From positions 307,001 through 371,000 of the forward strand of contig JAJGOT010000258.1 of the NCBI GenBank assembly GCA_022457155.1: a DNA stretch of 64,000 nt. The letters are read 5' to 3'. The notes beneath the pieces were generated by a model that saw only the letters and a program-made list of their open reading frames with translations, did not search any database and was not told the DNA's origin. This DNA comes from Cladopsammia gracilis. Taxonomy: Eukaryota > Cnidaria > Anthozoa > Scleractinia > Dendrophylliidae. This document shows, one piece after another, positions 5,803 to 23,373 of this stretch; position 1 is the first letter of the stretch, and each line of letters opens with the position of its first letter. Made by a program: the position numbers and the translations under genes.

Positions 5803-5818
5803 ATTTCATATAGAAAAC

Positions 5819-5836: not shown

Positions 5837-5969
5837 AGGGGATTCCCCGAATTATGCGTATTGATATTTCTTGAATATAAACACCTGCAGTTTGTTTTGA
5901 CTATGGTTGAATATTTAATGATTTTACACATGAATATTCTAGAAGGGGTTTTCCCCTTTTTAAACCAAT

Positions 5970-6070
5970 CAAAACTGAAACAAAACTGAAACAAAACTGA
6001 AATAAAACTGATAAATTTTACAATTTGGATTTCAATTTGTTTCACAGTTTGGTTTCAGTTTTGTGTATTA
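5970..6070. repeat. Short tandem repeats CAAAACTGAAA in left TIR
   Basis: Three to four copies of an 11-bp unit (AAAACTGAAAC) run from about 5970 to 6015. Degenerate complementary copies (GTTTCAGTTTTG) follow to about 6066, so the stretch can fold back on itself. The mirror image is at about 23106-23206. Confidence 0.75.
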
Positions 6071-6158
6071 AATATTTTAACACCTGCTTTCAGTTTATGA
6101 AAATATCTAATTAAAATAACAGCGTGAAATACAAACAAGCCTGGATTTATTTAATTTC

Positions 6159-6680: not shown

Positions 6681-6697
6681 TTTATTATATAATTATT

Positions 6698-9025: not shown

Positions 9026-9042
9026 TTTTTTTTATTTTATAT

Positions 9043-9696
9043 TTATATAATATCATTAAAATTTTTAAATATTTCTTTCTTTGGTTTATCAATATATAAA
9101 AAAGAATAAGGATCTTTTGTAGCTAATCTATATTTCTTTTTATCAACATTATTTTCACGACATATCATAGAAATTTCATTATTACTTGGAAATTCATAAA
9201 TACAGAAATGAGAACAATTTAGTCGTATATCTTTTGGTGTTTTGTAATAACTTTGTGAAAGATAAATAACACTACAATTTTTATGCCTTCCATTAATAAA
9301 ATAATCAATCAGTGGTTTTTGATTCTTTTCACAAACAAAATCATCAAATATGATTACTTTTTGGTTATCATCTGATAATTCAGAAACTGGTAAAATTTCA
9401 TCATTACTAGGTTCTATAACTTCATAACCTGCTTCTTTATTAATTGATTTTTTAAATTTTCTTAATAAATACTTATATTTTGGTTGTTCTAAATTTTTAG
9501 CATATAAATATATTTTATCATAATATAATAACCTAAGAATCATATCTAGTAAAACATTTGTTTTTCCAGAACCTGAAGGACCACAAATAAGCATTCTAAA
9601 ATTTTGATTTGGCATGAAATCATGTAATTGCTTAAAATTAGAAATTAAGTCATCATCTAGATCATAGTTTGGTATTTTCATTTTATTATAAATCAT
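9043..9696 (-). CDS. atp: Inner Polinton: FtsK/HerA-type DNA-packaging ATPase
   Basis: 217 residues, the usual size for Polinton ATPases. Walker A is GPSGSGKT at residues 39-46 after a hydrophobic strand (RMLIC). Walker B is KVIIFDDF at residues 113-120, with D118 and D119. A conserved Ser/Gln-rich sensor region (YLSQSYYKTPKDIR) follows. The protein would pump element DNA into a preformed capsid. The ATG at 9696 sits just after an AT-rich leader shared with the divergent gene at 9739, so 9697-9738 is probably a two-way promoter. Confidence 0.93.
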   Translation of the reverse strand: MIYNKMKIPNYDLDDDLISNFKQLHDFMPNQNFRMLICGPSGSGKTNVLLDMILRLLYYDKIYLYAKNLEQPKYKYLLRKFKKSINKEAGYEVIEPSNDEILPVSELSDDNQKVIIFDDFVCEKNQKPLIDYFINGRHKNCSVIYLSQSYYKTPKDIRLNCSHFCIYEFPSNNEISMICRENNVDKKKYRLATKDPYSFLYIDKPKKEIFKNFNDII

Positions 9697-9738
9697 AGAT
9701 AATTTAAAAAAAAAAATAATACAATCATAATAATAAAA
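9697..9738. promoter_or_regulatory. Divergent promoter between ATPase and Glu/Lys-rich gene
   Basis: 42 bp, almost entirely A and T, separating two divergent ATGs. Contains an A-run (about 9701-9715) and CATAATAATAAAAATG at the plus-strand start, resembling the other capsid-gene leaders. It must serve both genes. Confidence 0.6.
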
Positions 9739-10857
9739 ATGAGTTTATTGAAATGGAAAGAACTTGCTAAACAAAAATCTGAGTTGGGAAATAAAATTAA
9801 TTTTGTTCATGATAGAATAACAAAGAAAAAATTAGGCGAAGAAACAAGTCAATTAGGTTATGAAAAAATGTTTAAACCTATAACAAAATTACTAGAAGAA
9901 AAACCTAAAAAAGAAGAAAAACCTAAAAAGAAGGAGATAGAAGAAGATTTATATGAAGGTTTGGAAGATTTTTTAGAAGATGATTTTGGATATGATATTG
10001 ATGATGTTTTTAATTATGGTGAGGATATACAACCTTATGAAACTGCTGCACCCAAAGAATATGAAACTGCTGTAGCCGAAGAATATGAACTACAACCTTA
10101 TGAAACTGCTGTACTCGAAGAAGAAAAACAAATACCAGAAGATATTGGTGAAGAAGTTTTTCCACAAAAAGAAAAACAAATACCTAAAGGTCCTCCACCA
10201 GGATATGATCCTGGATCATATGTAGAAGAAGCACAAAGAAAAGCTTTAGAAGAAAAAGAAGTATTTAAAAGTTATGGTTTACCTATTCCTGAAGAAAATA
10301 TTGGCAAAAAATCAAAAGAAGAATTACTTGAATCTTGGAATAAAGTAGTAATTGACATTGGAAATGTAAAAGCTAAAAATACAAAAGATTTAAAAAAAAT
10401 AATGAAAGAAAATTCTCCTGAAAATGGAGAAAAATTTTTTAATAAAATACAAGAATTAAAGAAGAAAGAAAATTCTCCTGAAAGACAAGAAGAAATGAAT
10501 ATTTTAAGTAAAAATATGATTAAAGAATTTTCTCCTGAAATACAAGAAGAAATATCAAAAAATTTAAAAGAAAGAGATAAACTAGATTTAGAAAGTAATA
10601 TTATTACACTAAGAAGAGATAAATTTAAAAAAACTGGTAAAGGACTTAAAATAAAAAAAGGTGGAAATGTAACATTTTACAATGATCCAAAAGAACTTCT
10701 TAAAAAACTTGAATTAATTGTAGGTTCTATTATAGCTGGTAATACAAATATTGAAATGTATAATATTGGAATTGCAATTTTAGACATCCTTTTGAAAACA
10801 AAAGTAATAAATAAATCTCAACATGAAAAGATTTATAAAAATTATTTTAAACAATAA
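9739..10857 (+). CDS. Inner Polinton: Glu/Lys-rich protein of unknown function
   Basis: 372 residues. Residues 45-90 are highly acidic and basic in turn, 95-130 contain three YETAV/YETAA repeats, and a PPPGYDPG segment lies near residue 155. Three (E/F)SPE repeats lie between about 220 and 270. The C-terminal 70 residues, beginning with a Gly/Lys-rich stretch, look folded (YNDPKELLKKLELIVGS and a helical end). First gene of the plus-strand virion block. The charged repeats suggest a disordered scaffold or internal virion protein; the Pro-rich PPPGY could be a late-domain-like motif. Both are inferences. Confidence 0.65.
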   Translation: MSLLKWKELAKQKSELGNKINFVHDRITKKKLGEETSQLGYEKMFKPITKLLEEKPKKEEKPKKKEIEEDLYEGLEDFLEDDFGYDIDDVFNYGEDIQPYETAAPKEYETAVAEEYELQPYETAVLEEEKQIPEDIGEEVFPQKEKQIPKGPPPGYDPGSYVEEAQRKALEEKEVFKSYGLPIPEENIGKKSKEELLESWNKVVIDIGNVKAKNTKDLKKIMKENSPENGEKFFNKIQELKKKENSPERQEEMNILSKNMIKEFSPEIQEEISKNLKERDKLDLESNIITLRRDKFKKTGKGLKIKKGGNVTFYNDPKELLKKLELIVGSIIAGNTNIEMYNIGIAILDILLKTKVINKSQHEKIYKNYFKQ

Positions 10858-10874
10858 TATATTATTATTATAAA
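10855..10874 (+). promoter_or_regulatory. Capsid-gene leader motif before penton-like gene
   Basis: A variant of the recurrent AT-rich motif (ATATATTATTATTATAAA) lies immediately before the ATG at 10875. It gives almost no untranslated leader if it is a TATA-type promoter. Confidence 0.5.
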
Positions 10875-11636
10875 ATGGATAGAGAAATAGTATTATCATC
10901 ATATTCTGTTAAAACAGAAAATGGTAACAAACCTGAAAATTTCACAACAAAATTTAGTAAACCAATTGTTTTAGATAGCAATGCACAATATGTAATTGGT
11001 CTTAATCGTGTTATTAATATGAGTTTTACATGGTTTAATATAAATGCTGATTATAAAAATCAATTAATTAGATACAGTTCTGATAATGGTAGAACATTTA
11101 AAGATATCAGTTTTCCAGGTGGAGTTTGGAATTATGTTTATATCGATGCATTTATTAAACATATAACTGTAATAAAACAATCTGGAAAAGAAGATGAATA
11201 TCCAATTAGTATTATTTTTGATGAAACAACTTTTAGAGTAACAATAAGATTGAAAGAGAATTATCAACTGGATTTTACACAAAGTAATTTTTATGAATTA
11301 TTAGGATTTGATAAGAAAATTATAAAAGATAAAATAAATGTGGGTCCTAGAGTTCCAAATTTAAGTCAAGATACAGATATTTTAAATATACATTGTGATT
11401 TAATTAATGATTCACTTGTAGATGGTCAAGATAGTGATATTATTTATAGTTTTTCCACTTCTGTTTTAAGACCATCATTTAGTTTTACTCTTGAACCAAA
11501 AAGAATTACTTATAATCCAGTAAATAAAAATACTATTAATAGTATAAGAATTTACATTACTGATGGAAAAAGAAGATTAATTGACCTCAATGGGGCGGAT
11601 ACATCTTTTTCATTATTGTTGAAAAAAATAATATAA
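10875..11636 (+). CDS. Inner Polinton: penton-like minor capsid protein
   Basis: 253 residues, beta-rich, without TM segment or signal. It has features of the Polinton minor capsid (penton) family: an N-terminal strand with NFTTKFSKPIVL, a middle FYELLGFDKK and a C-terminal strand ending SFSLLLKKI. The family is predicted to form single jelly-roll capsomers at the fivefold vertices. Position one gene before the basic protein and MCP supports the role. Assignment rests on size, strand pattern and context more than on invariant residues. Confidence 0.7.
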   Translation: MDREIVLSSYSVKTENGNKPENFTTKFSKPIVLDSNAQYVIGLNRVINMSFTWFNINADYKNQLIRYSSDNGRTFKDISFPGGVWNYVYIDAFIKHITVIKQSGKEDEYPISIIFDETTFRVTIRLKENYQLDFTQSNFYELLGFDKKIIKDKINVGPRVPNLSQDTDILNIHCDLINDSLVDGQDSDIIYSFSTSVLRPSFSFTLEPKRITYNPVNKNTINSIRIYITDGKRRLIDLNGADTSFSLLLKKII

Positions 11637-11651
11637 ATCTAATAATAAAAA
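11628..11651 (+). promoter_or_regulatory. Capsid-gene leader motif before basic protein
   Basis: AATATAAATCTAATAATAAAA directly precedes the ATG at 11652, the same pattern as before the MCP and core genes (TATAATCTAATAATAAAA). Confidence 0.6.
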
Positions 11652-12023
11652 ATGAAATCTTACGAATTTTCTCGTTTTTATAATCCAAAATTAGGTAGAT
11701 TTATGTATAAACATAAAGGTAATGGTATGGTTGTTGATAATATTTTAAAACCAATGAGAAGTGTTATGTCAACTGTTTTCAAAAAATTTGCTAAACCTGT
11801 GGCTAAAAAAGCATTAGAAGCAGGGATTTCTCATACTGGAGAAAGATTAGGTAAAAAGATTTCTGAAAAATCTGGTGATTTAATAATGAAAAAATTAGGT
11901 AATATGAGAATAAACACTCCTAAAAAAACAAAACAAACATTACCAAAAACACCCCTAAAACAAAAAGAAGATACTAACATTATTTTAAATAGATTAATAT
12001 CTGGTAATGGATTAAAATTTTAA
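11652..12023 (+). CDS. Inner Polinton: small basic virion protein
   Basis: 123 residues, strongly basic. The middle (about 33-80) is predicted helical with alternating hydrophobic and Lys residues and ends in a Lys/Pro/Thr-rich tail. It precedes the MCP, like the Arg/Lys-rich protein at 24696-25031 in the outer element. A cement or membrane-lytic role like adenovirus protein VI, or DNA condensation, is possible; the sequence alone does not decide. Confidence 0.65.
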   Translation: MKSYEFSRFYNPKLGRFMYKHKGNGMVVDNILKPMRSVMSTVFKKFAKPVAKKALEAGISHTGERLGKKISEKSGDLIMKKLGNMRINTPKKTKQTLPKTPLKQKEDTNIILNRLISGNGLKF

Positions 12024-12032
12024 AAAATAAAA

Positions 12033-12057
12033 TTTATATAATCTTATAAAATAAAAT
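12033..12057 (+). promoter_or_regulatory. Capsid-gene leader motif before MCP
   Basis: TTTATATAATCTTATAAAAT followed by AAAAT lies directly before the MCP ATG. It is one of the clearest copies of the motif TTTATATAATCTNATAATAAAATG. Confidence 0.65.
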
Positions 12058-13335
12058 ATGGCTTTCAGATCAAGTGAATATTTACAAAGAAATGAAATGA
12101 TAAGATTTCAATTAGATGATGTGATTAGAATTCCAGCTAATGGTCAATCTCAAGTTAAAACTGGTTATAAATTCACAATTAATGATAGATCAGCATTTTA
12201 CGATTGGTATAACGCATATTTTGAAGTAGATTTTGAGTTACAAAAATTAGCAGATGGTGCTGGTTATGCTGCAGCTGATAGAATTACAGTTTTAAATGGT
12301 TCACATAGTTTAATTAATCATATCATGCTTAAATCTGCAGGTAAAATAATTTATGATACTAATAATTTACATAAAGTTACTTTTGTTAAAAATTTGTTAG
12401 AATATTCTGATGATTATAGCAGATCAGTAGCTAAAAACAGTTTCTGGTATTTGGATACTGATAATACAACTGCTAATACTAATTCAGGATATGAAGCTAG
12501 ACGTGTACAAACTCAAGCTGTACAAAACAATGGTGGTGGAGGCTCTAAAAATATTAATACTATTATACCATTAAATCGTTTTTCTTTCTTTGAAGAACTT
12601 GAAGATAAGATGCTTGTACCTATGCAATTACAATTCAACATTGAGCTTCAAAATGACAGTGAATTAATTCATATGGCTAATGGTACTGATGCTGGAAGAG
12701 TTGTTGTTAAAAAATTTTTACTTTGGGTACCAAAATTAACACCAAAAGACTCTTTATATGATAAATTTGTTACTTCATTCATGAAAGAAACAAAATGGAA
12801 ATATTTAAGGGAAATGTATGAATCATCAGCTCCTACACGATCATCAGGATTTTTTCAAATATCAAGTAGTATTGATAATATAAAACATATTTTTATTTAC
12901 TTGAAAAATACAAATCCACCTAATAATGCTCAAGCTGAAGATAATCCTTATCTTATGAATACTTATGAATTGGATGCTAATTCTCACTTACAAAACTGTA
13001 GATTGGAATATGGAAATGGAGTATTTTATCCAGAAACAGAATATGATAGTGAAGGTAAAGTAAGAATATTCAATGATGTAATGTCATACGCAATGAGGAA
13101 AAATGATTATAATACAGGAACACAACTTAATTTAGCTAATTATAATTCTCTATATGGATTGATATATTTTGATCTTACATATCAAGCAGAAAAAATCACT
13201 AGAGATCCTAAACAATTAATTTTCAGATATACATTAAGTGCTAATGCAGCTGAAAACTTTAATGTACATGCTATAGTATTATATGAAGAAATGGTGAAAA
13301 TTGATAAAATTGGAAATGAATTAGTAATTGTATAA
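12058..13335 (+). CDS. mcp: Inner Polinton: double-jelly-roll major capsid protein
   Basis: 425 residues, beta-rich, no TM. It would form the capsid shell as trimeric capsomers. Recognised from the N-terminal pattern (NEMIRFQLDD, then NDRSAFYDWYNAYFEVDFEL), the ITVLNGSHSLINHIMLKSAG segment, the NRFSFFEELEDKMLVPMQLQ core and the C-terminal strand EKITRDPKQLIFRYTL. It lies between the basic protein and the core protein, the usual Polinton order. The outer element's MCP (25192-26588) is clearly a different lineage, with no shared block I can align by eye. Start supported by the leader motif at 12033. Confidence 0.88.
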   Translation: MAFRSSEYLQRNEMIRFQLDDVIRIPANGQSQVKTGYKFTINDRSAFYDWYNAYFEVDFELQKLADGAGYAAADRITVLNGSHSLINHIMLKSAGKIIYDTNNLHKVTFVKNLLEYSDDYSRSVAKNSFWYLDTDNTTANTNSGYEARRVQTQAVQNNGGGGSKNINTIIPLNRFSFFEELEDKMLVPMQLQFNIELQNDSELIHMANGTDAGRVVVKKFLLWVPKLTPKDSLYDKFVTSFMKETKWKYLREMYESSAPTRSSGFFQISSSIDNIKHIFIYLKNTNPPNNAQAEDNPYLMNTYELDANSHLQNCRLEYGNGVFYPETEYDSEGKVRIFNDVMSYAMRKNDYNTGTQLNLANYNSLYGLIYFDLTYQAEKITRDPKQLIFRYTLSANAAENFNVHAIVLYEEMVKIDKIGNELVIV

Positions 13336-13346
13336 AATGTAAAAAA

Positions 13347-13373
13347 TTTATATAATCTAATAATAAAATTAAA
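13347..13373 (+). promoter_or_regulatory. Capsid-gene leader motif before core protein
   Basis: TTTATATAATCTAATAATAA plus AATTAAA immediately before the ATG at 13374. Same motif as before the MCP. Confidence 0.65.
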
Positions 13374-14207
13374 ATGACAACTTATCATCCATACAAAATA
13401 AATTTATCTGACAATCAAAAAAAGAAACTTGCAAAAGCATATAAAACAAACACTCCTTTAACATTTAGATTAAAAAATAATCAAACAAGTGGAAATGATG
13501 AATTACTATTAACAACTAATCAAATTAACAAAATTAAAAAGGCTAAATCATTAGGAAAAGGAACAGACATCAAGATATCAAAAACACAAATTAGAAAAGT
13601 AATGAGACAGGGAGGAAGTTTATTTAGTAGTATTATTCCATTAGCACGTGCTGTTGCACCAACTTTAGCTAAAACACTTGGATTATCTGCTCTTGCTGGT
13701 TTAGCAAGTGAAGGAGCAAGTCAAATTGTTAAAAAGATAAGTGGTAATGGTCAAATAGGTGGTTTTTTAATACCACAAGATAAAATAAAAAAACTCATTG
13801 AAAATAAAAATCTACTTACAAATAAACAAAAACAAGACATATTAAACGCTCTTCAATCTGGAGGTAAATTAGTGATAAAACCAACTAAAAAACAATCTGG
13901 TGGATTATTAGGTACATTACTAGCTAGTATTGGTATACCTCTTGCTATTGAGGCTTTTAAAAAAATTACTGGAAAAGGAGCACCAAGAGTAGGTAGACCA
14001 AAAGGAAAAGGAGCACCAAGAATAGGAAAAGGAGCACCAAGAATAGGAATGTATGAACCACCCCCACCTTTTATAGGTCAATGGGGAAAAAATACTATTG
14101 GTATGGGAAAAAAAAAGTCAAAAAAAACTACGAAAAAAGGAAAAGGTCTTTTATTAGGGAAGGACAGTCCATTCAACAGCATTCCAATTCTCGGAACAAT
14201 ATTATAA
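13374..14207 (+). CDS. Inner Polinton: Gly/Lys-rich core protein with hydrophobic segments
   Basis: 277 residues. The N-terminal 85 residues are basic with LTTNQINKIKKAKSLGKG and a second K-I-S-K-T-Q block. Residues about 85-120 are Ala/Leu-rich and hydrophobic. Gly-Gly pairs recur (for example QGGS, IGGF, SGGK, SGGL) and could be cut by the adenain-like protease next door. Residues 200-230 repeat GKGAPR(V/I)G three times. The C-terminus SPFNSIPILGTIL is a compact hydrophobic end. The layout resembles adenovirus pX/pVI-like minor core proteins. The 3' end overlaps the protease frame by 127 bp in the -1 frame, with slippery A-runs at 14105-14117. Confidence 0.75.
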   Translation: MTTYHPYKINLSDNQKKKLAKAYKTNTPLTFRLKNNQTSGNDELLLTTNQINKIKKAKSLGKGTDIKISKTQIRKVMRQGGSLFSSIIPLARAVAPTLAKTLGLSALAGLASEGASQIVKKISGNGQIGGFLIPQDKIKKLIENKNLLTNKQKQDILNALQSGGKLVIKPTKKQSGGLLGTLLASIGIPLAIEAFKKITGKGAPRVGRPKGKGAPRIGKGAPRIGMYEPPPPFIGQWGKNTIGMGKKKSKKTTKKGKGLLLGKDSPFNSIPILGTIL

Positions 14208-14647
14208 AACCAAAATTCATAAACAAACCATTAAGTAATATTGATTTAATGAAATGGATAAAATACTTAAAAATTCCAAATTTCAAAGGTATATATTCAA
14301 GAGATGAAAATATGACTAAAAGTCATAGTCCATGTATAATAAATCTTGATTCATATGAAAACGTTGGAACTCATTGGGTTTGTTGTGTGAAAAGTCATGA
14401 TAATAAATTTATATGGTATTTTGATAGTTTTGGAATGGGTTATCCTGAAGAATTTAAAAGTAATGGTAAACCAATAATTTACAACTCAAGTCAATATCAA
14501 AATATTAAAAGTGTTCTTTGTGGTTATTATTGTCTTTATTTTCTTCATCAATGGTCAATGAAAAAAAATTTTTATGATATATTAAAACCATTCAGTTTAA
14601 GTGATACTATGTTTAATGAAAGATTTATTAAAAAATACTTTGAATAA
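14081..14647 (+). CDS. pro: Inner Polinton: adenain-like cysteine protease
   Basis: 188 residues from the first ATG. Catalytic residues are visible in order: H98 (THWVCC), D115 (WYFDSFG), Gln138 or Gln140 and nucleophile C151 (CGYYCLYFL). This is the adenovirus protease (C5) arrangement used to mature capsid precursors. The conserved N-terminal LSNIDLMKWIKYLK begins at residue 51, so residues 1-50, which overlap the core gene, may be read only incidentally. The next in-frame ATG (14249) lies inside that conserved helix and would cut it. Translation may therefore use the ATG at 14081 or -1 frameshifting from the core frame. Confidence 0.9.
   Translation: MGKKYYWYGKKKVKKNYEKRKRSFIREGQSIQQHSNSRNNIIKPKFINKPLSNIDLMKWIKYLKIPNFKGIYSRDENMTKSHSPCIINLDSYENVGTHWVCCVKSHDNKFIWYFDSFGMGYPEEFKSNGKPIIYNSSQYQNIKSVLCGYYCLYFLHQWSMKKNFYDILKPFSLSDTMFNERFIKKYFE
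14105..14117 (+). other. Possible -1 frameshift site, core protein to protease
   Basis: In the core frame the codons ATG GGA AAA AAA AAG create two phased heptamers, G GGA AAA (14105-14111) and A AAA AAG (14111-14117). A -1 slip enters the protease frame, open to 14647. The only downstream stem I see (14146-14152 with 14159-14165) is rather far away. The region is A-rich, so chance is a real alternative. Confidence 0.35.
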
Positions 14648-14649
14648 TC

Positions 14650-14678
14650 TTTTTTATAACAATGATTGTTATAAAAAA
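14650..14678. terminator. Hairpin between convergent genes
   Basis: TTTTTTATAACAAT and its exact complement ATTGTTATAAAAAA are separated by one base. The structure lies between the protease stop (14647) and the stop of the convergent minus-strand gene (14680), and could end transcripts from both sides. Confidence 0.55.
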
Positions 14679-14679
14679 A

Positions 14680-14880
14680 TCAAATATATATACTTCCCTT
14701 TATCAATCCTTTTAATTTTCTAAGTTTTCTCTTTATATTCAAAACTAAAATAATTATCTTTAATAATCTTTTATCTTCATTAAAATTAGTATAAACAATA
14801 TGATCAAATATGCATTCTATCATTTCATTCAAGTTTTTTATTTCATTCTCTATAAATACAGATCTACTACTTTCTTCCAT
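14680..14880 (-). CDS. Inner Polinton: small Lys-rich protein
   Basis: 66 residues, convergent with the protease. The N-terminal half is acidic and helical and the C-terminal half is rich in Lys and Ile/Leu. Support as a real gene: its ATG at 14880 has the same ATATAAATATAAAATAAAA-type leader as the fibre gene, it ends at a hairpin terminator, and the space is otherwise unused. No family recognised. Confidence 0.5.
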   Translation of the reverse strand: MEESSRSVFIENEIKNLNEMIECIFDHIVYTNFNEDKRLLKIIILVLNIKRKLRKLKGLIKGSIYI

Positions 14881-14920
14881 ATTTTATTTTATTTTATATT
14901 TATATAATCTTAATAATAAA
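14881..14920. promoter_or_regulatory. Divergent promoter with capsid-gene motif
   Basis: 40 bp of nearly pure A/T between divergent ATGs. On the plus strand TTTATATAATCTTAATAATA (14899-14918) is a clear copy of the capsid-gene leader motif before the zinc-ribbon start at 14921; on the minus strand it reads as an AT-rich leader for the 66-codon gene. Confidence 0.6.
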
Positions 14921-15073
14921 ATGAAATCTTATTGTGTGAAAGAAAAAAAACAAACTGATTGTGTAGAACCTAGTGGATATAAAACAACAAAAAATGGAAG
15001 ATTAATGTTTTTCTGTAAATGTGCTTCTTGTGGAATAAAAAAAACACGTTTTGTTAAGAAACAGGGAAACTAA
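14921..15073 (+). CDS. Inner Polinton: 50-residue zinc-ribbon protein (DUF5679-like), upstream partner of a -1 frameshift
   Basis: 50 codons, ATG 14921 directly after a capsid-gene leader motif, TAA at 15071-15073. It resembles the DUF5679 zinc-ribbon family found in Polintons: Y-C-V-K start, a middle KTTKNGRLM, then CASCG and a basic KKTRFV end. C34 and C37 form the second pair; in the first pair the usual second Cys is Glu8, so C5 may pair with C14 or C32. The last two sense codons plus the preceding base form the slippery heptamer G GGA AAC, immediately before the stop. The -1 frame is open to 15756. An upstream long frame beginning at 14810 is chance, since it lacks the promoter motif. 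Confidence 0.8.
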   Translation: MKSYCVKEKKQTDCVEPSGYKTTKNGRLMFFCKCASCGIKKTRFVKKQGN

Positions 15074-15129
15074 AAAAGCCTTCTTCTTCACAAACATCTC
15101 CTCTCAAAACATCAGAAGGAGAAGGCTTT
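15064..15129 (+). other. Predicted -1 ribosomal frameshift signal 1 (zinc ribbon to PLA2)
   Basis: The slippery heptamer G GGA AAC is at 15064-15070 in the correct phase (zero-frame codons GGA, AAC), followed by the zero-frame TAA. After a 4-7 nt spacer comes a stem-loop: 15075-15089 pairs with 15115-15129, 15 pairs with a single U-G wobble, around a 25-nt loop. These are the parts of a classical eukaryotic -1 frameshift element. Confidence 0.75.
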
Positions 15130-15756
15130 GGTGAATTAGCATTAACAGGTTTAACTCATGCTTTACCTTGGTTAGGTAAAAAAACAGTTGAAATGGGACG
15201 ATATGGAGCAAGTGAATTAATGAGAAATAAAAACATGCAAAAAGAAGCATTAGATTATGCTTTAGACCACGCAAAACCATTTTTACAAAAAACAACTTCA
15301 GATATGATGCATCAACTAAGTACTAAAATAAGACCAAAATTAAAATATAAAACAAATAGAAAAGATTTAGACTTTCAAGGAGGTAGTGTAGATATTCATA
15401 GCCTCATTGGAAAATTGCCAAAACCAAAAGGTGGTTGGACTCCTGGAGAATACAAGTATATGGGACCGTATAACCCTTTGAATGAACAATTAAGATATGA
15501 TCCTGAAACAGGTGAAGTATTAGAATGGATGGTTAAACCATATAATAAAGTAGATGAAATTGCTGCTTATCATGATATATGTTATGATATGGGAAAAAAT
15601 AAGAATGAATGTGATAGACAAATGGTTAAATCTTTAGATCAGATTCCATACGGTGAAATACCGAAATGGGGTCAAACAGCGAGATTTATTATAAATGCTA
15701 AACAAAAACTTGGTTTGGGTTTACCAAAGAAAACAAAAAACGTAAAGCGGCGTTGA
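15070..15756 (+). CDS. Inner Polinton: phospholipase A2-like capsid protein (reached by -1 frameshift)
   Basis: The frame is open from 15058 to the TGA at 15754-15756. The first ATG is at 15193 and would give 187 residues. Counting from it, a GPYNPL calcium-loop-like motif is at 91-96 and the catalytic dyad H127-D128 lies in AAYHDICYD. This is the arrangement of parvovirus VP1-type PLA2 domains that breach the endosomal membrane during entry. The region before 15193 is open and in phase with the frameshift site, and the ATG at 15193 lacks the AT-rich leader found before other genes. Hence I favour expression as an extension of the zinc-ribbon protein; initiation at 15193 is the alternative. 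It ends 13 bp after a second slippery site. Confidence 0.78.
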   Translation, partial: LKKPSSSQTSPLKTSEGEGFGELALTGLTHALPWLGKKTVEMGRYGASELMRNKNMQKEALDYALDHAKPFLQKTTSDMMHQLSTKIRPKLKYKTNRKDLDFQGGSVDIHSLIGKLPKPKGGWTPGEYKYMGPYNPLNEQLRYDPETGEVLEWMVKPYNKVDEIAAYHDICYDMGKNKNECDRQMVKSLDQIPYGEIPKWGQTARFIINAKQKLGLGLPKKTKNVKRR

Positions 15757-15789
15757 GTAATAATAGTGATTGGACTCAACAATTAGCCG
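15735..15789 (+). other. Predicted -1 ribosomal frameshift signal 2 (PLA2 to integrase)
   Basis: A AAA AAC (15735-15741) is phased with the PLA2 frame (codons AAA, AAC) and lies 12 nt before its TGA. A -1 slip enters the integrase frame. Downstream, GTTGAGT (15752-15758) pairs exactly with ACTCAAC (15774-15780), and CGGC (15748-15751) can add pairs with GCCG (15786-15789) across a small bulge. The spacer is then 6 nt. Confidence 0.7.
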
Positions 15790-16709
15790 ATGAATTACAT
15801 AAACCAATCACCAGAAATTTTTCAAAGAGAACTGTAATATCAAATGGGATTGATGAAATCTGGGCTGCAGATTTGGTTGAAATGCAAAAGTTTAGTAAAT
15901 GGAATAAAGGAATAAATTATTTACTGATGGTAATAGATATTTTTAGTAAATATGGATGGATTGAACCATTGAAAAACAAAAAGACTGAAAGTGTTAGTAA
16001 AGCATTTGATGATATATTTAAAAAAAGTAAACGTAAACCAAAAATGCTTTGGACAGATAAAGGTTCTGAATTTATCAGTAAACATTTCAAGGACTTTCTT
16101 GAAAAGAATAAAATCAAATTATATCATACAGAGAATGAAGAGAAATCAAGCATTGTTGAGAGATGGAATAAAACAATGAAAACCAGAATGTTTAAGATGT
16201 TCAGTGTAAATAACAATACTGTTTATTGGAACATCCTTGATAAATTAGTTAATAATTATAATAAAACAAGACATTCTAGTATTAAAATGACTCCAATTCA
16301 AGCTAGTAAAAAAGAAAACGAAGAAAAAGTTTATGCTAATTTATATTCAGATTTAATTTATTTGAAACCTGGAAAAATAAAATTTAAGGTTGGAGATTTC
16401 GTTCGTATATCAAAATATAAGAGACCTGTATTTGATAAAGGATATACTCCTAACTGGACAGAGGAAGTATTTGTGGTTAATGAAATATTAAATACAAAAC
16501 CTATTACCTATAAAATTGTTGATTTAATGGGTGAAGAAGTAAAAGGATCTTTTTATGAAAAAGAGTTACAAAAAACAAAACAAGAAATATATAGAATTGA
16601 GAAAGTATTGAAACGAGACACCAAGAAAAAGTTAGCTTTAGTTAAATGGAGTGGATATCCTGACAAGTTTAATTCGTGGATTCCTTTGAGTGATTTAAAA
16701 GATTTTTAA
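15741..16709 (+). CDS. int: Inner Polinton: retroviral-type integrase with chromodomain (reached by -1 frameshift)
   Basis: Inserts element DNA, making the 6-bp duplication. Numbering from the TTG at 15753 gives 318 residues: D40 (WAADLVEM), D102 (WTDKGSEF) and E136 (IVERWNKT) form the DDE core; an SH3-like region with KFKVGDFVRISK follows near 210; a chromodomain (YRIEKVLKR ... VKWSGYPDKFNSWIP) ends the protein. The frame opens after a stop at 15699-15701 and contains no ATG until Met44 at 15882, four residues past the first catalytic Asp. AUG initiation would therefore give an inactive enzyme. Expression by -1 frameshifting at 15735-15741 explains this; non-AUG initiation at TTG is the main alternative. 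Confidence 0.92.
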   Translation, partial: RKAALSNNSDWTQQLADELHKPITRNFSKRTVISNGIDEIWAADLVEMQKFSKWNKGINYLLMVIDIFSKYGWIEPLKNKKTESVSKAFDDIFKKSKRKPKMLWTDKGSEFISKHFKDFLEKNKIKLYHTENEEKSSIVERWNKTMKTRMFKMFSVNNNTVYWNILDKLVNNYNKTRHSSIKMTPIQASKKENEEKVYANLYSDLIYLKPGKIKFKVGDFVRISKYKRPVFDKGYTPNWTEEVFVVNEILNTKPITYKIVDLMGEEVKGSFYEKELQKTKQEIYRIEKVLKRDTKKKLALVKWSGYPDKFNSWIPLSDLKDF

Positions 16710-16730
16710 TACTATTGTAGTATTAAAAAT
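16702..16730. terminator. Hairpin at integrase stop
   Basis: ATTTTTAATACTA pairs perfectly with TAGTATTAAAAAT around a 3-nt loop and includes the integrase TAA (16707-16709). Confidence 0.5.
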
Positions 16731-16752
16731 TGTTTCAAGCGACATAAAAAAA

Positions 16753-16769
16753 AGCCCTTAAAAGGGCTA
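16753..16769. terminator. GC-cored hairpin between convergent genes
   Basis: AGCCCTT-AA-AAGGGCT (16753-16768) is flanked by an A-run on the left and a T-run on the right. It resembles a two-way intrinsic terminator between the integrase and the convergent gene ending at 16786. Confidence 0.55.
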
Positions 16770-16785
16770 ATACTTTTTTTTTATT

Positions 16786-17532
16786 TTAAAACAAATCCTG
16801 TGAATCACCTTCTTCATTTTCTTCATCGACTTCGTCATCACTTTCTTCTTTAATCATTAATAATGATTCTCTTGGTTTCAATGGTCTAACATAAACTTCA
16901 TGAACTTTAATTTGAATAGATTTTACTAATTTGGAAATATAAATACTCTCAATTATTAAAGCTAATTTTACTTTACAATATTGATTAAGGTATTCAAATG
17001 GATCAACATTTTTATTTCCTTTTGTTTTAAACAAAGATAGAATTTTATTAGATTTTTCTGAATATATAAGTTTTGCATATAAAACTGGTGAAACACTATC
17101 ATCAATTACTGTTTTAGGTCTTCCTTTTTTATCAGTAATTTCTTTCTTTTTATAATATAATATTTGCGATAAATTTTGAGATTCTTCAACACCAATTGTT
17201 TCTTCAAGATGATTATAACAAAGTTGTTGTATTTTTTCTAATGTTTTAAAAAACTTTTTTTCTTCTTTTGTTGGTTCTTTATCTTTTTCCCATAAACAAA
17301 CAGGAATTGTATATCCAACTAATTCTTGAGATTCTTGATTCTTTCTTTCAGATACACCAAAACTAAAAAGTAAAGGTGTTTCTATTATAAGAGGACCTTT
17401 AGAACCATTAGGATAAGTTGTTTCGATTTTCATACGATGATATTTCATTTTAGAATTCTTGACTTTATATTGTTTGGCTTCGTTAAAAAATAGATTTTCT
17501 TTAGAAATGTTTTCGGGAGATATAAGTTGCAT
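16786..17532 (-). CDS. Inner Polinton: DUF2738-like protein, possible ssDNA-binding factor
   Basis: 248 residues. The N-terminal half carries KGPLIIETPLLFSFGV (about 45-60), and residues 150-220 carry SPVLYAKLIY and a C-terminal beta pattern (VKLALIIESIYIS, then KVHEVYVRPL). This recalls the DUF2738 family of large DNA viruses and Polinton-like viruses, for which a single-stranded DNA-binding role has been suggested. The last 25 residues are a very acidic tail (EESDDEVDEENEEGD), common in ssDNA-binding replication proteins. It belongs to the right minus-strand block with polB. The start has the leader TTTATATATAATAAAATG. Family match is by eye only. Confidence 0.55.
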   Translation of the reverse strand: MQLISPENISKENLFFNEAKQYKVKNSKMKYHRMKIETTYPNGSKGPLIIETPLLFSFGVSERKNQESQELVGYTIPVCLWEKDKEPTKEEKKFFKTLEKIQQLCYNHLEETIGVEESQNLSQILYYKKKEITDKKGRPKTVIDDSVSPVLYAKLIYSEKSNKILSLFKTKGNKNVDPFEYLNQYCKVKLALIIESIYISKLVKSIQIKVHEVYVRPLKPRESLLMIKEESDDEVDEENEEGDSQDLF

Positions 17533-17602
17533 TTTATTATATATAAATATTTTTTTTTAAATTTTTTTTTTTTTTAAAATTATAAATTTCAGCATAAAAA
17601 AA
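17533..17602 (-). promoter_or_regulatory. Replication-block promoter-like region
   Basis: On the minus strand it reads poly-A, TTTAAAAAAAAATATTTATA, then TATAATAAAATG at the start of the gene at 17532. The same TTTAAAAAAAA-ATATTTA core precedes the gene at 18346 and, in weaker form, polB. A GTTGTAGC box is absent here. Confidence 0.5.
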
Positions 17603-17619
17603 ATCCCTAAAAAAGGGAT
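17603..17619. terminator. Hairpin after minus-strand gene
   Basis: ATCCCT-AAAAA-AGGGAT lies just beyond the stop (17627) of the minus-strand gene that begins at 18346, flanked by A- and T-rich runs. Confidence 0.45.
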
Positions 17620-17626
17620 ATAATTA

Positions 17627-18346
17627 TTAATAAATATAATTAACTTGACTATCACTAACACTTACTCTAGCAGAATCAGAATCAGAATCAGAATCAGAAT
17701 CAGAATAATCGGTTTGCCAATGAATAATAACATCTTTTTCTTTAAAATAACTTTTAAAATCTTTAACAATTTTTCTTATTTCTTTATTTATTTCTTTATC
17801 ATCTTTTCTCAATGAAAGTTTTCCCTGACATTTAAAAATATCTTCACGATATAATGATTTTCTATATTTTTTTTGTCTTAACATAATACTTTTAATTATG
17901 CTAAAACTTAAATAATTAGAATGTGTAAAATCTATTAACTTTTCATAATTTAAAATTCCGAATTTTATATCATCACCTTCTATACAATATAATACTTTTT
18001 TTTTATATTCTTCTTTCATTAAATATTTTCTAATATATTTTATTTCTTTTCTTATTCTATTCAAATATTTTCTTTTTTGTTTGTCTATTTCATTACTTTT
18101 TTGACTTTTTTTAAAATATCTTAATATATCTTTTATTTTTAAACTATTATCTGATATAATTTTATCTTCAATTTCTCTCTTTCTTAACTCATAAAATCTT
18201 CGATAATTAATATATATATTGTGAAAATGAAGATCAATCATAAACATTTTACCATATAATATTTTATCAAAATATGTTACACCAAAAAGAGTGATAGGAA
18301 TTGCTTTGTATTGCGTATTAACAGATTTGCTTTGCGAAGAATTCAT
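17627..18346 (-). CDS. Inner Polinton: unrecognised Lys-rich protein with Ser-Asp tail
   Basis: 239 residues. An N-terminal beta-like part (ITLFGVTYFDKILYGKMFMIDLHFHN) is followed by a long Lys/Arg/Glu helical region (50-200) and a tail of six consecutive Ser-Asp pairs (about 217-228). Such SD runs are typical casein-kinase targets or acidic linkers. It is read with polB and the transcription-factor-like gene. Its promoter region shares the GTTGTAGC box with polB, suggesting common timing. No function assigned. Confidence 0.6.
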   Translation of the reverse strand: MNSSQSKSVNTQYKAIPITLFGVTYFDKILYGKMFMIDLHFHNIYINYRRFYELRKREIEDKIISDNSLKIKDILRYFKKSQKSNEIDKQKRKYLNRIRKEIKYIRKYLMKEEYKKKVLYCIEGDDIKFGILNYEKLIDFTHSNYLSFSIIKSIMLRQKKYRKSLYREDIFKCQGKLSLRKDDKEINKEIRKIVKDFKSYFKEKDVIIHWQTDYSDSDSDSDSDSARVSVSDSQVNYIY

Positions 18347-18403
18347 TTTTTATTTTATATAAATATTTTTTTTTTTAAATTATTATTTTTTTTCTGCTAC
18401 AAC
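18347..18403 (-). promoter_or_regulatory. Promoter region with GTTGTAGC box
   Basis: On the minus strand GTTGTAGC (18396-18403), then A-rich sequence with TTTAAAAAAAAAAATATTTA and TATAAAATAAAA before the ATG. The box lies 50 bp before the start codon, almost as before polB (55 bp), and is preceded in both cases by TTTTGAAA/TTTTTGAAA. Confidence 0.55.
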
Positions 18404-18427
18404 TTAATTTTCAAAACTTAATTAAAA

Positions 18428-18976
18428 TTATGATATTATAATTTCTTTTTTAACTAATTCCCACCATTCTTCATAAAAAGCTTTTGTTTCTTCTGAAAGT
18501 TTTAGTGGTAATAATTCATCAACATTACTATATCCAAGAATAATTAAAATCTTTTTTATAATAAAAGTGATATTAATGATTCTCTTTCTTTCAAACTGTG
18601 TATTTACTTTCTTAATTAAATTTGCATTATCAATTTTATAAAGTATTTCATTAATCTTAGAAATATCATCATTTTTTATATCAAAAATGTTTTGTATTTC
18701 ATTGATCTTTTTCTTAAAAAAATACTTTCTTTGGTATACTGATTTTTTTCTATAACAACATCTTTCCCAATCAGATATATTAACATCATAATTTAATATT
18801 CTTTGAATTTGAAGACCACAATCACAACAAACTTCAGCATAATCAATAATTTCTTTATTCTCATGTTTACATTTTTCATATATTGGTTTATTTCTTTTTT
18901 TCTTTTTTTTGATTTTACTTTTTTCATAAGATCTTAATATGGAAGAATATAATTTAATCTCTTCTTCTGTATACAT
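18428..18976 (-). CDS. Inner Polinton: zinc-ribbon transcription-factor-like protein (VLTF3/TFIIB type)
   Basis: 182 residues. A Lys-rich start is followed by a zinc-ribbon-like segment with C36, H38 and C50/C51-x-x-C53-G (ending DCGLQIQR). Next comes a Y-x-R-x-x-F-F motif (residues 81-87, VYQRKYFFKKKINEIQ) and two helical blocks, the last containing KKILIILGYSNVDELLPL. The order zinc ribbon, then YxR-(H/F)F motif, then helices, recalls poxvirus late transcription factor 3 and relatives in large DNA viruses; the ribbon itself also looks like TFIIB. Such a factor could recognise the repeated AT-rich leaders seen before the capsid genes. Family assignment is tentative. Confidence 0.5.
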   Translation of the reverse strand: MYTEEEIKLYSSILRSYEKSKIKKKKKRNKPIYEKCKHENKEIIDYAEVCCDCGLQIQRILNYDVNISDWERCCYRKKSVYQRKYFFKKKINEIQNIFDIKNDDISKINEILYKIDNANLIKKVNTQFERKRIINITFIIKKILIILGYSNVDELLPLKLSEETKAFYEEWWELVKKEIIIS

Positions 18977-18978
18977 AT

Positions 18979-19133
18979 TTAATCTTTTATTTTTTTTAAA
19001 TTTTTTAAATTTTCTCTTTTATAAAATCTTTCTCTCTTATACCTTTTATATCTAATTTCTTCATCAAAATCTTCTATTAAAAAAGTCTTCTTAAATATAT
19101 TAATAAAATATCTTTTTTTGTGAAATTAATCAT
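18979..19133 (-). other. Possible tiny gene or remnant between transcription-factor-like gene and polB
   Basis: An ATG at 19133 follows a typical leader (ATAATATAAAATAAAATG on the minus strand) but stops after 18 codons (19077). The -1 frame then stays open for about 33 codons to 18979 and is very Lys/Arg/Tyr-rich. The junction CTT TTT TAA is not a canonical slippery heptamer. It may be a damaged small gene or chance in A/T-rich sequence. Confidence 0.25.
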
Positions 19134-19156
19134 TTTATTTTATATTATTATTTTTT

Positions 19157-22100
19157 TTATTTTCTCAAAGCTAAAGTATTAATTTTATTTTTACAAATCA
19201 GTCTTTTATCGTCATTTGCAGATAATGCTACTTTATTCACTTTCATTGAGTAAATTTCATGATTTTTACTTCTAATTATATTCATTTGCCGGAAGTCTTC
19301 TTTTTCTGAGAATAAACAATTTTTATAATCTTCAAATGTTATTTCCTTTTTAATAACATTCTTTTTAATTCCTTTACATTTCTTAATTTCTTCATCATCA
19401 ACCTTAAAAGAATAAAGTTTAGGTCTTAATCCAACAAATTCCGTTATTTGTTTTCCACAAACTTCATCCTTAAACATTCCTATTACTTTCTTATTAACTC
19501 CTGTTTTTATTCCAGATTCATGTTTTTCTGGATAATCACTTGTATCAAACTTCTTTTTTATGTCTTTCTTTATATCATTGTAAAAATCATCTGTATGAAT
19601 TTCATACATTAATGAATCTGTATCTGTAAAAAGTAATTCAGCTTTATTAGAATATTTTTTTCTTATATAATTATAGTGAAAATCATACATATGTAATTTA
19701 GATAAATCAAGAACAGCTTGACCAACATAAATAGGTTTATTAAAATATATTTCTGTTTTTTTCATATGAACTGCTATTAAATTTTTATCAAACATTGTTA
19801 AACGATCATAATTAGGTTTTGATGTTAATTTTTTAACAATTTCCATATTATTTACTATTTTTATATTTTGTCTTTTTCTAATATTTTCAATTGTTTTCCC
19901 AAATACAGAATTATTCATTAATTTAAAAAAGTCTTTTTCAAATGAATTTTTAGATTGTTTTCTTAATTCTGTATTTTTATGAATATAAGGTTTCATCCAA
20001 GTAGATTGATAAAATGATATTCCTCTATGTACTTTTTTTAGTGTAAGACCTAAATCTAAACATTGTTTAAGATTTCTATAATGTATTATATAATTTTTTT
20101 TAATATAAAAATTACCAACAAGTTTCTCTACTGAATCAAACTTTAATCTTTCGACCGCAAGTGGATAATCATTATGTGGATCCCATAATTCCTTTGGATA
20201 TTTAAGATCCACTTCAAATATATATCCATGATTTGTGATTTTCTTATTTAGTATTTTTAATACACTTTCTTTTGTTATATCTTTCATCCATTTAAAACCA
20301 TGAGTTGGAAGTCTTTGAAACATTGCATGACCATAAAGATTATTTGCATCAAGATATGTAATAAATTTTGATGGAATATCAGGATTATAATTTTCCATAT
20401 ATTTATTGTTTGCTTCTGAATATCTTTTTGATATATGAGTAATTCCACCTCTAATTCCTTGATCAAACATCATTAACATATCATAATCATGTAATAATTC
20501 AAGACTTTGTTTTGTTTCTTTAAGACAAGCATCCCAAGCTAAACCAGGAGATGTATAATAATGAGCTGGATCTAAATTATAATGTTTCAAACATGTTTTA
20601 CGGAAATTTTCAAAAACATCAGCTAAAAGCAATACATCAGTCTTAAGATATAAATCATGATAATCTTTAATAGTTTTACAATTGAAAGAAGACCAAACTT
20701 TTTGTGCATGGTGGTAGTCATCTTCTGTGATGTCTTCATTATATAAATGTGAATAAAAGTCTTCTTTTAGTGGTAATTTAGTTTCTTTAAATTTTTCTAG
20801 AGAATTTACATAATCATAAGGATATACTCCTTTTCTTATTAATAAATCTGTATTATTTTTATAATACTTTTTTATTGAATAAAAATCATTAGGTTGTAAA
20901 TTATTAACAAGACCTGAAAGGGAAGTTAATAAAAATTTAAATGAATCAATAAATCGTAATTCAAAAATAACATTAACTATTTCTTCTGTCTTTTCTGATT
21001 TAAATTCATGAACTTTAATTTTCTTAGAAAATGATATATATTTCTCTTCTGTTTTAGGAATAAAAGTTAAATCATTACCTTCCATTTTTGCTAATTCTTT
21101 AATAAAAAGATGTGAATCATAACCTTGAAGATTATGAAATATTATAGGAATTATTTTAGGTTTTCTACAATTAAGATTACAAATATTATGAGCAGCTCCT
21201 CTATATTTCCCAGTAAAATGACAATGATCTCTAACTTTACTATATTTTTTATTAATATCATCTTTTATAAAAGGTTTTTCACAAATATGACAAATAGTTG
21301 AATTATTAAATTCTATTTTATCAGATGTCGTAAATATCATCATTTTTTTAAAGGTATAAAAACTAAAATTAATTTGTTTTACTATTTTTTCTAGTTTTTC
21401 TACAAAAATTAATGCAATATTTTCATCTTCTTTTTCCTTTGTATAAACAATAGGATTAGTTTTAAATATTCTATCCACACTTTCATCAAAATCAAAAGAT
21501 TTAATATAAATACAAAATCCACAAGGTTCATGTTTTTGATATTCCATTGTAAAAGAAGAATTAGGATCTGGTTCACAATTATTCATTGGTTTTGTAAAAC
21601 ATTCAAAATCAGCATAAATAACAAATGGAAAAGGTATTTTATAATTAAAATTTTTGAAAAATGTAAATGAGTTTTTAGTAGGCATTTTTATTGCAGCTGT
21701 GGTATTATCTTTACAAAAAATAAAATGTTTCTTTAAGAGATCCTCTTTTATAAAATGAGACAAACATTTTTTACAATAATATTTTTTTCTGGTAGTATCT
21801 TTACTAACTTGAGAATTGATTAATCTTTGAAAATTTTTAATAAAAGTATAATGTGATTTTCCATTGTCTTCATAAAGAAACAAATCTATTGAATTATTAC
21901 AATCTTTATCATTCATTCTTAAAGGATAAAATTTATTATTTTCATTAATAGAAAAAACATTAATTCCTGGAAGACTTGGATTTAGATTTTCAAACTTTTT
22001 TATATCTGTTAATTTAATTGGAAATTTAATACCTTTAAAATTAAGTTCTTTTTTATACTGTTTCAAATCTGAAATCCTTTGAGGTTGACCAATTTTAGAT

Positions 22101-22921: not shown

Positions 22922-23026
22922 CCTTTTATAATATGTAAATATTATTTTTTTTAAATTTCAATTTTATTTATTTTCGCTACAACGCAATTTCAAAAATATT
23001 TACACTCCCTACAGACAAAAATCAAT
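22922..23026 (-). promoter_or_regulatory. polB promoter region with GTTGTAGC box
   Basis: Between the polB ATG and the right TIR. On the minus strand: TTTTTGAAATTGCGTTGTAG C (box at 22976-22983), A-rich spacer, TTTAAAAAAAATAATATTTA, then TATTATAAAAGGATG. Box spacing and flanks match those before the gene at 18346. Confidence 0.55.
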
Positions 23027-23339
23027 TAAATCCAGGCTTGTTTGTATTTCACGCTGTTATTTTAATTAGATATTTTCATAAACTGAAAGCAGGTGTTAAA
23101 ATATTTAATACACAAAACTGAAACCAAACTGTGAAACAAATTGAAATCCAAATTGTAAAATTTATCAGTTTTATTTCAGTTTTGTTTCAGTTTTGTTTCA
23201 GTTTTGATTGGTTTAAAAAGGGGAAAACCCCTTCTAGAATATTCATGTGTAAAATCATTAAATATTCAACCATAGTCAAAACAAACTGCAGGTGTTTATA
23301 TTCAAGAAATATCAATACGCATAATTCGGGGAATCCCCT

Positions 23340-23357
23340 TGTCTAACGCGTTAGACA
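23340..23357. repeat. 18-bp perfect palindrome, right copy
   Basis: TGTCTAACGCGTTAGACA, the mirror position of 5819-5836, 16 bp inside the right terminal palindrome. Confidence 0.8.
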
Positions 23358-23373
23358 GTTTTCTATATGAAAT

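What the first reader, a model, noticed from the sequence alone, without database searches (positions are those of the whole stretch)
15735..15789. Second -1 frameshift signal: integrase frame lacks any usable AUG
A AAA AAC (15735-15741) is phased with the PLA2 frame, 12 nt before its stop, and a stem-loop (15752-15758 with 15774-15780, extendable by 15748-15751 with 15786-15789) follows. The integrase frame has no ATG between the stop at 15699-15701 and Met44 at 15882, which lies after catalytic Asp40. So an active integrase from AUG is impossible without a slip (or non-AUG start). Together with the first site this gives serial -1 events, zinc ribbon to PLA2 to integrase, like gag-pro-pol in some retroviruses.
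Basis: partly seen in the sequence, partly recalled or inferred. Interest (0 to 1): 0.9.

Follow-up and report, generated by a model that had tools for sequence, protein, structure and literature searches.

The report
Double frameshift signal in a Polinton

Summary
In detail: A AAA AAC (15735-15741) is phased with the PLA2 frame, a -1 slip enters the integrase frame, and that frame has no ATG before 15882. Alone this is weak: 3345 of 5000 shuffles hold a phased heptamer. Relatives decide it. Of 78 junctions from the host genome, 73 could be anchored: 60 keep exactly A6C in the slipping phase (57 with integrase at -1 to PLA2), 8 have A7 (7 fuse PLA2 and integrase), 5 are other. A stem starts 6-7 nt downstream: an H-type pseudoknot in the window's clade, a 13-bp long-range stem in a sister clade, both with some compensatory changes. 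Site 1, G GGA AAC at the zinc-ribbon stop, shows the same pattern. TTG 15753 is lost in several families that keep the heptamer. Related proteins include natural PLA2-integrase and zinc ribbon-PLA2 fusions. Best reading: serial -1 frameshifting, zinc ribbon to PLA2 to integrase, in a Polinton. Nothing here measures slipping. My paper searches found no report of it.

The parts
5161..24015 (.). Polinton/Maverick element that carries the finding; ends AGTAGT...ACTACT, flanked by GGATGT on both sides
   Evidence: 997-nt perfect inverted repeats 5161-6157 and 23019-24015; flanks; GC mostly 20-28% between the repeats against about 35-45% outside
14921..15073 (+). Zinc-ribbon ORF (DUF5679), first frame of the series; stop TAA 15071-15073
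   Evidence: PF18930 E 2.6e-07
15064..15070 (+). Slip site 1, G GGA AAC, last codons before the zinc-ribbon stop
   Evidence: same heptamer before the stop in 43 of 58 long loci and by DNA pattern in at least 6 of the other 15
15075..15129 (+). Hairpin after site 1: 15-bp stem 15075-15089 x 15115-15129
   Evidence: -20.9 kcal/mol, z -6.84 in 60 nt, -3.69 in 90 nt; an 8-bp hairpin at the same place in 13 diverged copies
15058..15756 (+). PLA2 ORF (parvovirus-type phospholipase A2 domain), -1 to the zinc ribbon; stop TGA 15754-15756
   Evidence: PF08398 E 2.8e-07
15735..15741 (+). Slip site 2, A AAA AAC, in the PLA2 frame
   Evidence: A6C in the slipping phase in 60 of 73 anchored loci
15748..15789 (+). 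Stem 1 of the pseudoknot after site 2: 15752-15758 x 15774-15780, outer part 15748-15751 x 15786-15789; 6-nt spacer
   Evidence: compensatory changes
15766..15811 (+). Stem 2 of the pseudoknot: 15766-15773 x 15804-15811
   Evidence: a 6-bp core can form in 22 of 25 distinct sequences, 4.8 expected
15702..16709 (+). Integrase frame (rve core + chromodomain), -1 to PLA2, no ATG before 15882
   Evidence: PF00665 E 1.5e-12, PF00385 E 2.5e-07; retroviral integrases among PDB matches

Best explanation
The element expresses three overlapping ORFs, zinc ribbon, PLA2 (-1) and integrase (-1 again), from one mRNA by two successive programmed -1 ribosomal frameshifts. At site 1 the ribosome slips on G GGA AAC just before the stop, helped by a hairpin about 7 nt downstream. 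At site 2 it slips on A AAA AAC, helped by an H-type pseudoknot 6 nt downstream in the window's clade and by a long-range stem 7 nt downstream in a sister clade. Most ribosomes make zinc ribbon or zinc ribbon-PLA2; a minority make the C-terminally extended integrase fusion. Shown here: the sequence signals, their phase, their conservation and pairing in relatives, and in-frame fusions in relatives. Inferred: that slipping happens, its efficiency, and that the fusion keeps integrase scarce and carries it with a virion-type protein (PLA2), as Gag-Pro-Pol does.
For: Signals and phase. Site 2: of 78 loci, 73 anchored, 60 A6C in phase, 8 A7, 5 other; 57 of the 60 have integrase at -1 by tblastn frames. 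All 20 stretches keep CAAAAAAC, 19 with integrase at -1; they were picked as 20 of 28 matches covering only the integrase part, which favours split frames but not the heptamer. The 60 fall into 11 clusters at 80% identity; AAC is 37 of 404 Asn codons in the window's element. Window-clade pseudoknot (21 of 25 distinct sequences): 96.0% of cells paired, at most 44.8% when slid, 15 cells changed on both sides, 0 of 500 shuffles. Stem 2 pairs as GATTGG/CCAATC, GACTGG/CCAGTC and, in a shifted register, GGCTGG/CCAGCC. Sister-clade 13-bp stem (16 sequences): 99.5% paired, at most 48.8% slid, 7 double-change cells, 0 of 500. Site 1: GGGAAAC before the stop in 43 of 58; hairpin in the 13 short-loop sequences of 27 distinct: 98.1% paired, at most 58.7% slid. 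The integrase-frame stop lies 2 codons before the heptamer in L054, 5 in L066 and L073. Natural fusions: ten zinc ribbon-PLA2 by motif, 34 PLA2-integrase proteins of 462-583 aa.
Against: No RNA, ribosome or protein data. A phased heptamer alone is common by chance at site 2. The number of pairs with double changes is small and often reached by shuffles: 2 pairs, 133 of 500; 2 pairs, 11 of 500; 3 pairs, 265 of 500; further pair types 198, 500 and 500 of 500. These are the measures least misled by relatedness. Single-sequence folding is modest: z60 at or below -2 in 8 of 28 distinct site-2 sequences and near 0 in much of the sister clade; 12 of 27 at site 1. Not all copies conform at site 2: 8 of 73 are A7, L030-L033 and L036 are in frame by other indels, L035 has a changed heptamer, L048, L056 and L074 have A6 but other frame relations. 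At site 1, L030-L032, L036, L046 and L050 have no canonical heptamer before the stop, L033 has A7, and L011 and L013 gave no zinc motif and no GGGAAAC row. 9 of 60 A6 copies have an ATG in the integrase frame before the first Asp, and 38 of 60 keep a TTG within 8 codons.
Confidence: 0.88

Rival explanations
1. The integrase starts at TTG 15753 (overlapping the PLA2 stop as TTGA), by reinitiation or non-AUG initiation.
For: The aligned position is where 105 of the 120 listed integrase homologues begin in the database's predicted proteins. TTGA overlap in the window; TTG within 8 codons of the heptamer in 38 of 60 A6 copies.
Against: A predicted start written as M may be TTG in the DNA, which was not seen; natural fusions such as P0025, P0052 and P0077 have Leu there. 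The VSS family has TCG and the sister clade TCG or CTG, yet both keep heptamer and stem.
Confidence: 0.05
2. An intron, RNA editing or polymerase slippage on the A-run puts the integrase in frame at the RNA level.
For: A6 and A7 variants exist among genomic copies, so the run changes length in DNA; splicing was not tested.
Against: A GT right after the heptamer is not conserved (GT, GG, GC, GA, AG). Stems kept 6-7 nt downstream fit ribosomes better than polymerases. Six A is short for polymerase slippage (recalled).
Confidence: 0.06
3. Two or three separate genes; the frame offsets and heptamers are chance or decay, and the integrase frame of these copies is not translated.
For: Phased heptamer in 3345 of 5000 shuffles at site 2; decayed copies with internal stops occur among relatives.
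Against: 117 of the 120 scored integrase matches, the best end of the list, have no internal stop. Residues before the first ATG are conserved across families. Pairing at both sites far exceeds the slid controls.
Confidence: 0.01
4. Same mechanism, with a twist: A7 copies read PLA2-integrase directly and use the kept signal in reverse, to release some PLA2.
For: The 7 fused A7 copies all keep stem 1 and 5 of 7 keep stem 2; several have open fused ORFs.
Against: The kept stems may only reflect recent ancestry or the protein sequence.
Confidence: 0.15

Closest known systems
Retroviral gag-pro-pol frameshifting (betaretroviruses, HTLV group)
   Same: The heptamers GGGAAAC (MPMV, SRV, FIV) and AAAAAAC (MMTV, IAP, HTLV) with spacers of mostly 6-8 nt and pseudoknots are tabulated in PMC3835772 (passages; its text names gag-pro junctions). 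Two successive -1 slips with the integrase at the far end are recalled.
   Different: A Polinton with long inverted ends; the upstream proteins are a zinc ribbon and a PLA2; no reverse transcriptase among the ORFs scanned.
Adintovirus penton and hexon-adenain slippery sequences predicted with KnotInFrame (PMC11071296)
   Same: A related virus group; a -1 slip proposed from sequence.
   Different: Different genes; the frameshift passages seen concern penton and hexon-adenain, not integrase, and PLA2 is not mentioned in that text.
Sf Maverick CAP (PLA2 domain) and INT (PMC5803895)
   Same: A Maverick with a PLA2-domain protein and a chromodomain integrase (passages).
   Different: The passages seen list CAP and INT as separate ORFs and use 'frameshift' only for errantiviruses.
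Bacterial IS1/IS3 orfA-orfB transposase frameshifting (recalled, no call)
   Same: A DNA transposon whose enzyme needs a -1 slip.
   Different: Bacterial, one slip, small two-gene element.

Membership tests
Programmed -1 ribosomal frameshift signal | X XXY YYZ heptamer in the upstream frame | tested here: met
   both sites
Programmed -1 ribosomal frameshift signal | Downstream ORF at -1 overlapping the upstream stop | tested here: met
Programmed -1 ribosomal frameshift signal | Stem-loop or pseudoknot about 5-9 nt downstream | tested here: met
   6 nt at site 2, 7 nt at site 1 counted to the GCC core, 4 nt to the full 15-bp stem
Programmed -1 ribosomal frameshift signal | Conservation with compensatory changes | tested here: met
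   pairing and double-change cells beyond controls; the count of double-change pairs is within shuffles at site 1 and in the window's clade
Programmed -1 ribosomal frameshift signal | Measured slip in cells | not testable with these tools
   no expression data held
Polinton/Maverick | Long terminal inverted repeats and 6-bp target duplication (the latter recalled) | tested here: met
   997 nt at 100%; GGATGT on both sides; AGTAGT/ACTACT ends as described in PMC8097293
Polinton/Maverick | Retrovirus-like integrase | tested here: met
   PF00665 plus chromodomain PF00385
Polinton/Maverick | Protein-primed DNA polymerase B | tested here: inconclusive
   1254-aa ORF 19157-22921; Pfam gave only endonuclease VII below cut-off; polymerase motifs recognised from memory
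Polinton/Maverick | Adenovirus-type protease | tested here: inconclusive
   PF00770 E 0.021, below cut-off
Polinton/Maverick | Packaging ATPase | tested here: met
   PHROG terminase E 3.3e-14 and ATPase E 1.8e-08 for 9043-9696
Polinton/Maverick | Double jelly-roll capsid protein | tested here: inconclusive
   12055-13335 has no significant Pfam or PHROG match; no fold was run
Adintovirus | PolB with OTU-like domain and adintovirus hexon | not tested
   definition seen in PMC11071296
Retrovirus / LTR element | Reverse transcriptase and LTRs | tested here: not met
   long inverted ends; no reverse transcriptase among the ten ORFs scanned with Pfam

The most novel reading that the evidence does not exclude
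In this Polinton clade the integrase is made as the end of a zinc ribbon-PLA2-integrase polyprotein through two serial -1 frameshifts, and the clade has repeatedly switched between frameshift (A6) and in-frame fusion (A7 or other indels) while keeping the signal; A7 copies may use it in reverse to release PLA2. A eukaryotic dsDNA element has thus converged on the gag-pro-pol strategy down to the same heptamers.
Probability: 0.5. Interest if true: 0.93.

Novelty: new variant of a known kind. Interest (0 to 1): 0.86.

Why it matters
[quoted passage not shown] A conserved double frameshift would set the integrase dose, tie the integrase to a virion-type protein, and be a clear convergence with retroviruses in a DNA element. 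It also means that annotation by single ORFs can miss or truncate such integrases; the database starts may be an example. It is directly testable with a short reporter.

Tried and rejected
Relatives of the integrase were sought in IMG/VR with two scans and none was found; GTDB contigs gave one distant bacterial match, not used. The single heptamer as evidence was rejected as too weak. A heptamer near 15040 considered first for site 1 was dropped because the PLA2 frame is closed just before 15058. The idea that the TTG is a mutated ATG was raised and dropped when natural fusions showed Leu and diverged DNA showed TCG or CTG there. A stop-codon-readthrough variant was suspected from four PLA2 homologues ending DWS (P0148, P0161, P0165, P0167), but no DNA was available, so it stays a lead.

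Imperfect parses: one search parsed 62 of 78 loci and misread the A-run in the L002 and L026 rows; one search used too narrow a pattern (16 sequences) and was replaced (25). In one search, five of 58 long loci had no zinc motif and ten a heptamer other than GGGAAAC; at least six of those fifteen (L004, L014, L045, L047, L049, L054) do have GGGAAAC + stop + hairpin in the DNA. The 50-nt windows cut the longer hairpins short. Alignment A4 uses 21 of 25 distinct sequences (L033, L036, L039 and L054 left out for indels or a mis-set start), A2 the 13 short-loop sequences of 27, A3 16 distinct sequences without L066 and L073, which are of the window type. The search was made with a fused protein, so its list favours fusions.

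Full report
What the window holds. Bases 5161-24015 are one Polinton/Maverick element: 997-nt perfect inverted repeats, ends AGTAGT/ACTACT, GGATGT on both sides, low GC against its surroundings. The end motif agrees with the vertebrate Maverick description in PMC8097293 (passages); that Polintons make a 6-bp target duplication is recalled. On the + strand, in order, lie a zinc ribbon (DUF5679), a parvovirus-type PLA2 protein and an rve integrase with a chromodomain. The three overlap, each at -1 to the one before.

The observation. Every coordinate in the finding is right. The first site, which the finding only mentions, is G GGA AAC at 15064-15070, directly before the zinc-ribbon stop, followed by a 15-bp stem (15075-15089 x 15115-15129; -20.9 kcal/mol, z -6.84 in 60 nt, -3.69 in 90 nt). 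Its fold has z -3.94 in 50 nt, -2.20 in 80 and -1.62 in 120. Taken alone, site 2 would not convince: 3345 of 5000 shuffled overlaps contain some phased heptamer; for site 1 it is 355 of 5000.

Conservation in the host genome. The window lies in an 878-Mb genome. The integrase query gave 5273 first-look candidates, of which 120 were scored, 97-100% identical, 117 without internal stop (this is the best end of the list). I read 78 junctions: 8 loci, 20 from the lower end of that list, 30 from a diverged query, and 20 of 28 matches that cover only the integrase part (this choice favours split frames, not the heptamer). Of the 78, 73 could be anchored: 60 have exactly A6C in the slipping phase, 8 have A7, and 5 are other. 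By tblastn frames 57 of the 60 have integrase at -1 to PLA2; L048, L056 and L074 do not. Seven of the 8 A7 copies read PLA2 and integrase in one frame, L050 does not. Of the 5 not anchored, L037 and L038 show A AAA AAC with integrase at -1, L035 has a changed heptamer, L033 and L036 are in frame. The 60 form 11 single-linkage clusters at 80% identity, 33 of them in one cluster; AAC makes 37 of 404 Asn codons in 14 ORFs of the window's element. All 20 stretches keep CAAAAAAC.

Structure. In the window's clade stem 1 changes in step: first inner pair G-C or U-A, third inner pair U-A or C-G, and the outer part is CGGC/GCCG with a bulge or AGAU/AUCU and AGGU/GCCU or ACCU without. Stem 2 changes in step too: GATTGG/CCAATC, GACTGG/CCAGTC and, four nucleotides nearer, GGCTGG with CCAGCC or CCGGCC; six pairs can form in 22 of 25 distinct sequences, 4.8 expected from shuffles, and L030, L052 and L053 fail. 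On 21 sequences the six inner pairs of stem 1 plus stem 2 are 96.0% paired, at most 44.8% when slid, with 15 cells changed on both sides (0 of 500 shuffles); the number of pairs with a double change, 3, is reached in 265 of 500 shuffles. In the sister clade a different helix, 13 bp with a long loop, starts 7 nt after the heptamer: 99.5% paired, at most 48.8% slid, 7 double-change cells (0 of 500), 2 double-change pairs (11 of 500). So the place of the stem is constant while its partner strand has turned over. Site 1 in 13 diverged copies has an 8-bp hairpin with a 3-nt loop, 98.1% paired, at most 58.7% slid, 5 double-change cells (0 of 500), 2 double-change pairs (133 of 500); the window's clade has a longer hairpin built on GCCUUCUUC and GAAGGAGAAGGC. 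Further pair types are within shuffles in all three. The sequences are related, so shuffles are not probabilities; the slid controls keep relatedness. Single-sequence z-scores are modest: at or below -2 in 8 of 28 distinct site-2 sequences and 12 of 27 at site 1.

Which start codon. In the 60 A6 copies, 5 have an ATG between the integrase-frame stop and the heptamer and 5 have one between the heptamer and the first Asp, L041 in both, so 9 copies in all; the Asp motif was found in 58 of 60. The integrase frame is open for only 2 codons before the heptamer in L054 and 5 in L066 and L073. TTG is kept in the window's family and some others (38 of 60 within 8 codons), but the VSS family reads TCG and the sister clade TCG or CTG.

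Relatives elsewhere. Of the 120 PLA2 homologues listed from 1456, 70 end KN..R, 16 LN..R, 11 have a KN or LN motif with a longer tail, 5 end at N, 18 are other. Ten are natural fusions with a zinc ribbon by the motif used there. A search with a fused protein, which favours fusions, listed 120 of 2494 matches. Among all 281 proteins held, 34 are continuous PLA2-integrase proteins of 462-583 aa, one cluster with 98 members. In 23 of these 34 the linker holds KKR, which is what the integrase frame reads at the A-run; the others differ. These are proteins; their DNA was not seen. Fused open frames without stops exist in the host genome as well.

How it most likely works. Ribosomes translating the zinc ribbon slip at G GGA AAC and continue into PLA2; a share of these slip again at A AAA AAC into the integrase. 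The products form a graded series with integrase rarest. A viral PLA2 is required for parvovirus infectivity (title of a reference in PMC5803895), so a PLA2 in a Polinton is plausibly a virion protein and the fusion could load integrase into particles; this step is inference. The A7 and other in-frame copies suggest that the fused protein is tolerated or used, and that relatives have moved between the two states more than once.

Comparison with the known. The heptamers and spacers are among those tabulated for MPMV, SRV, FIV (GGGAAAC) and MMTV, IAP, HTLV (AAAAAAC) in PMC3835772 (passages). It works like gag-pro-pol; it is not a retrovirus. For Polintons and adintoviruses I saw only a suggestion of slippery sequences in penton and hexon-adenain genes (PMC11071296, passages). 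Searches for Polinton with frameshift, slippery or PLA2, and adintovirus with phospholipase, listed no paper on this. Passages on frameshift were seen in eight of those papers; in the rest I saw only the listing. Subscription journals and Repbase are not held.

Limits. No measurement of slipping. The host and the species behind the database proteins are unnamed. The pairing evidence comes from families within one host genome.

Noticed in passing
window 14057-14207: The protease ORF (14057-14647) is also at -1 to the ORF before it (13356-14207) with a 150-nt overlap and five phased heptamers (14084-14120); a third slip is possible, but the protease frame has an ATG at 14081.
   Followed up: partly
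L040, L042, L045, L047, L049, L050, L052, L053: Copies with seven A instead of six at site 2; all but L050 read PLA2 and integrase as one frame and keep stem 1.
   Followed up: partly
P0148, P0161, P0165, P0167: PLA2 homologues that run into the integrase frame and stop after DWS, where relatives have QQLA; a stop before CAA TTA would resemble a known readthrough context (recalled). Protein only, no DNA.
   Followed up: no
L036: An open 543-aa frame in which the linker is read in the PLA2 frame and an indel leads back to the integrase frame at DELHKP.
   Followed up: no
G000: Integrase queries give 5273 to 7037 first-look candidates in the host genome, from several diverged Polinton families, many scored ones with open frames.
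   Followed up: partly
window 16786-17532 (-): A DUF2738 protein (E 3.1e-33) in the element.
   Followed up: no
window 5160-5292 and 5671-5803: Each terminal repeat contains a perfect inverted repeat of its own, 132-133 nt.
   Followed up: no
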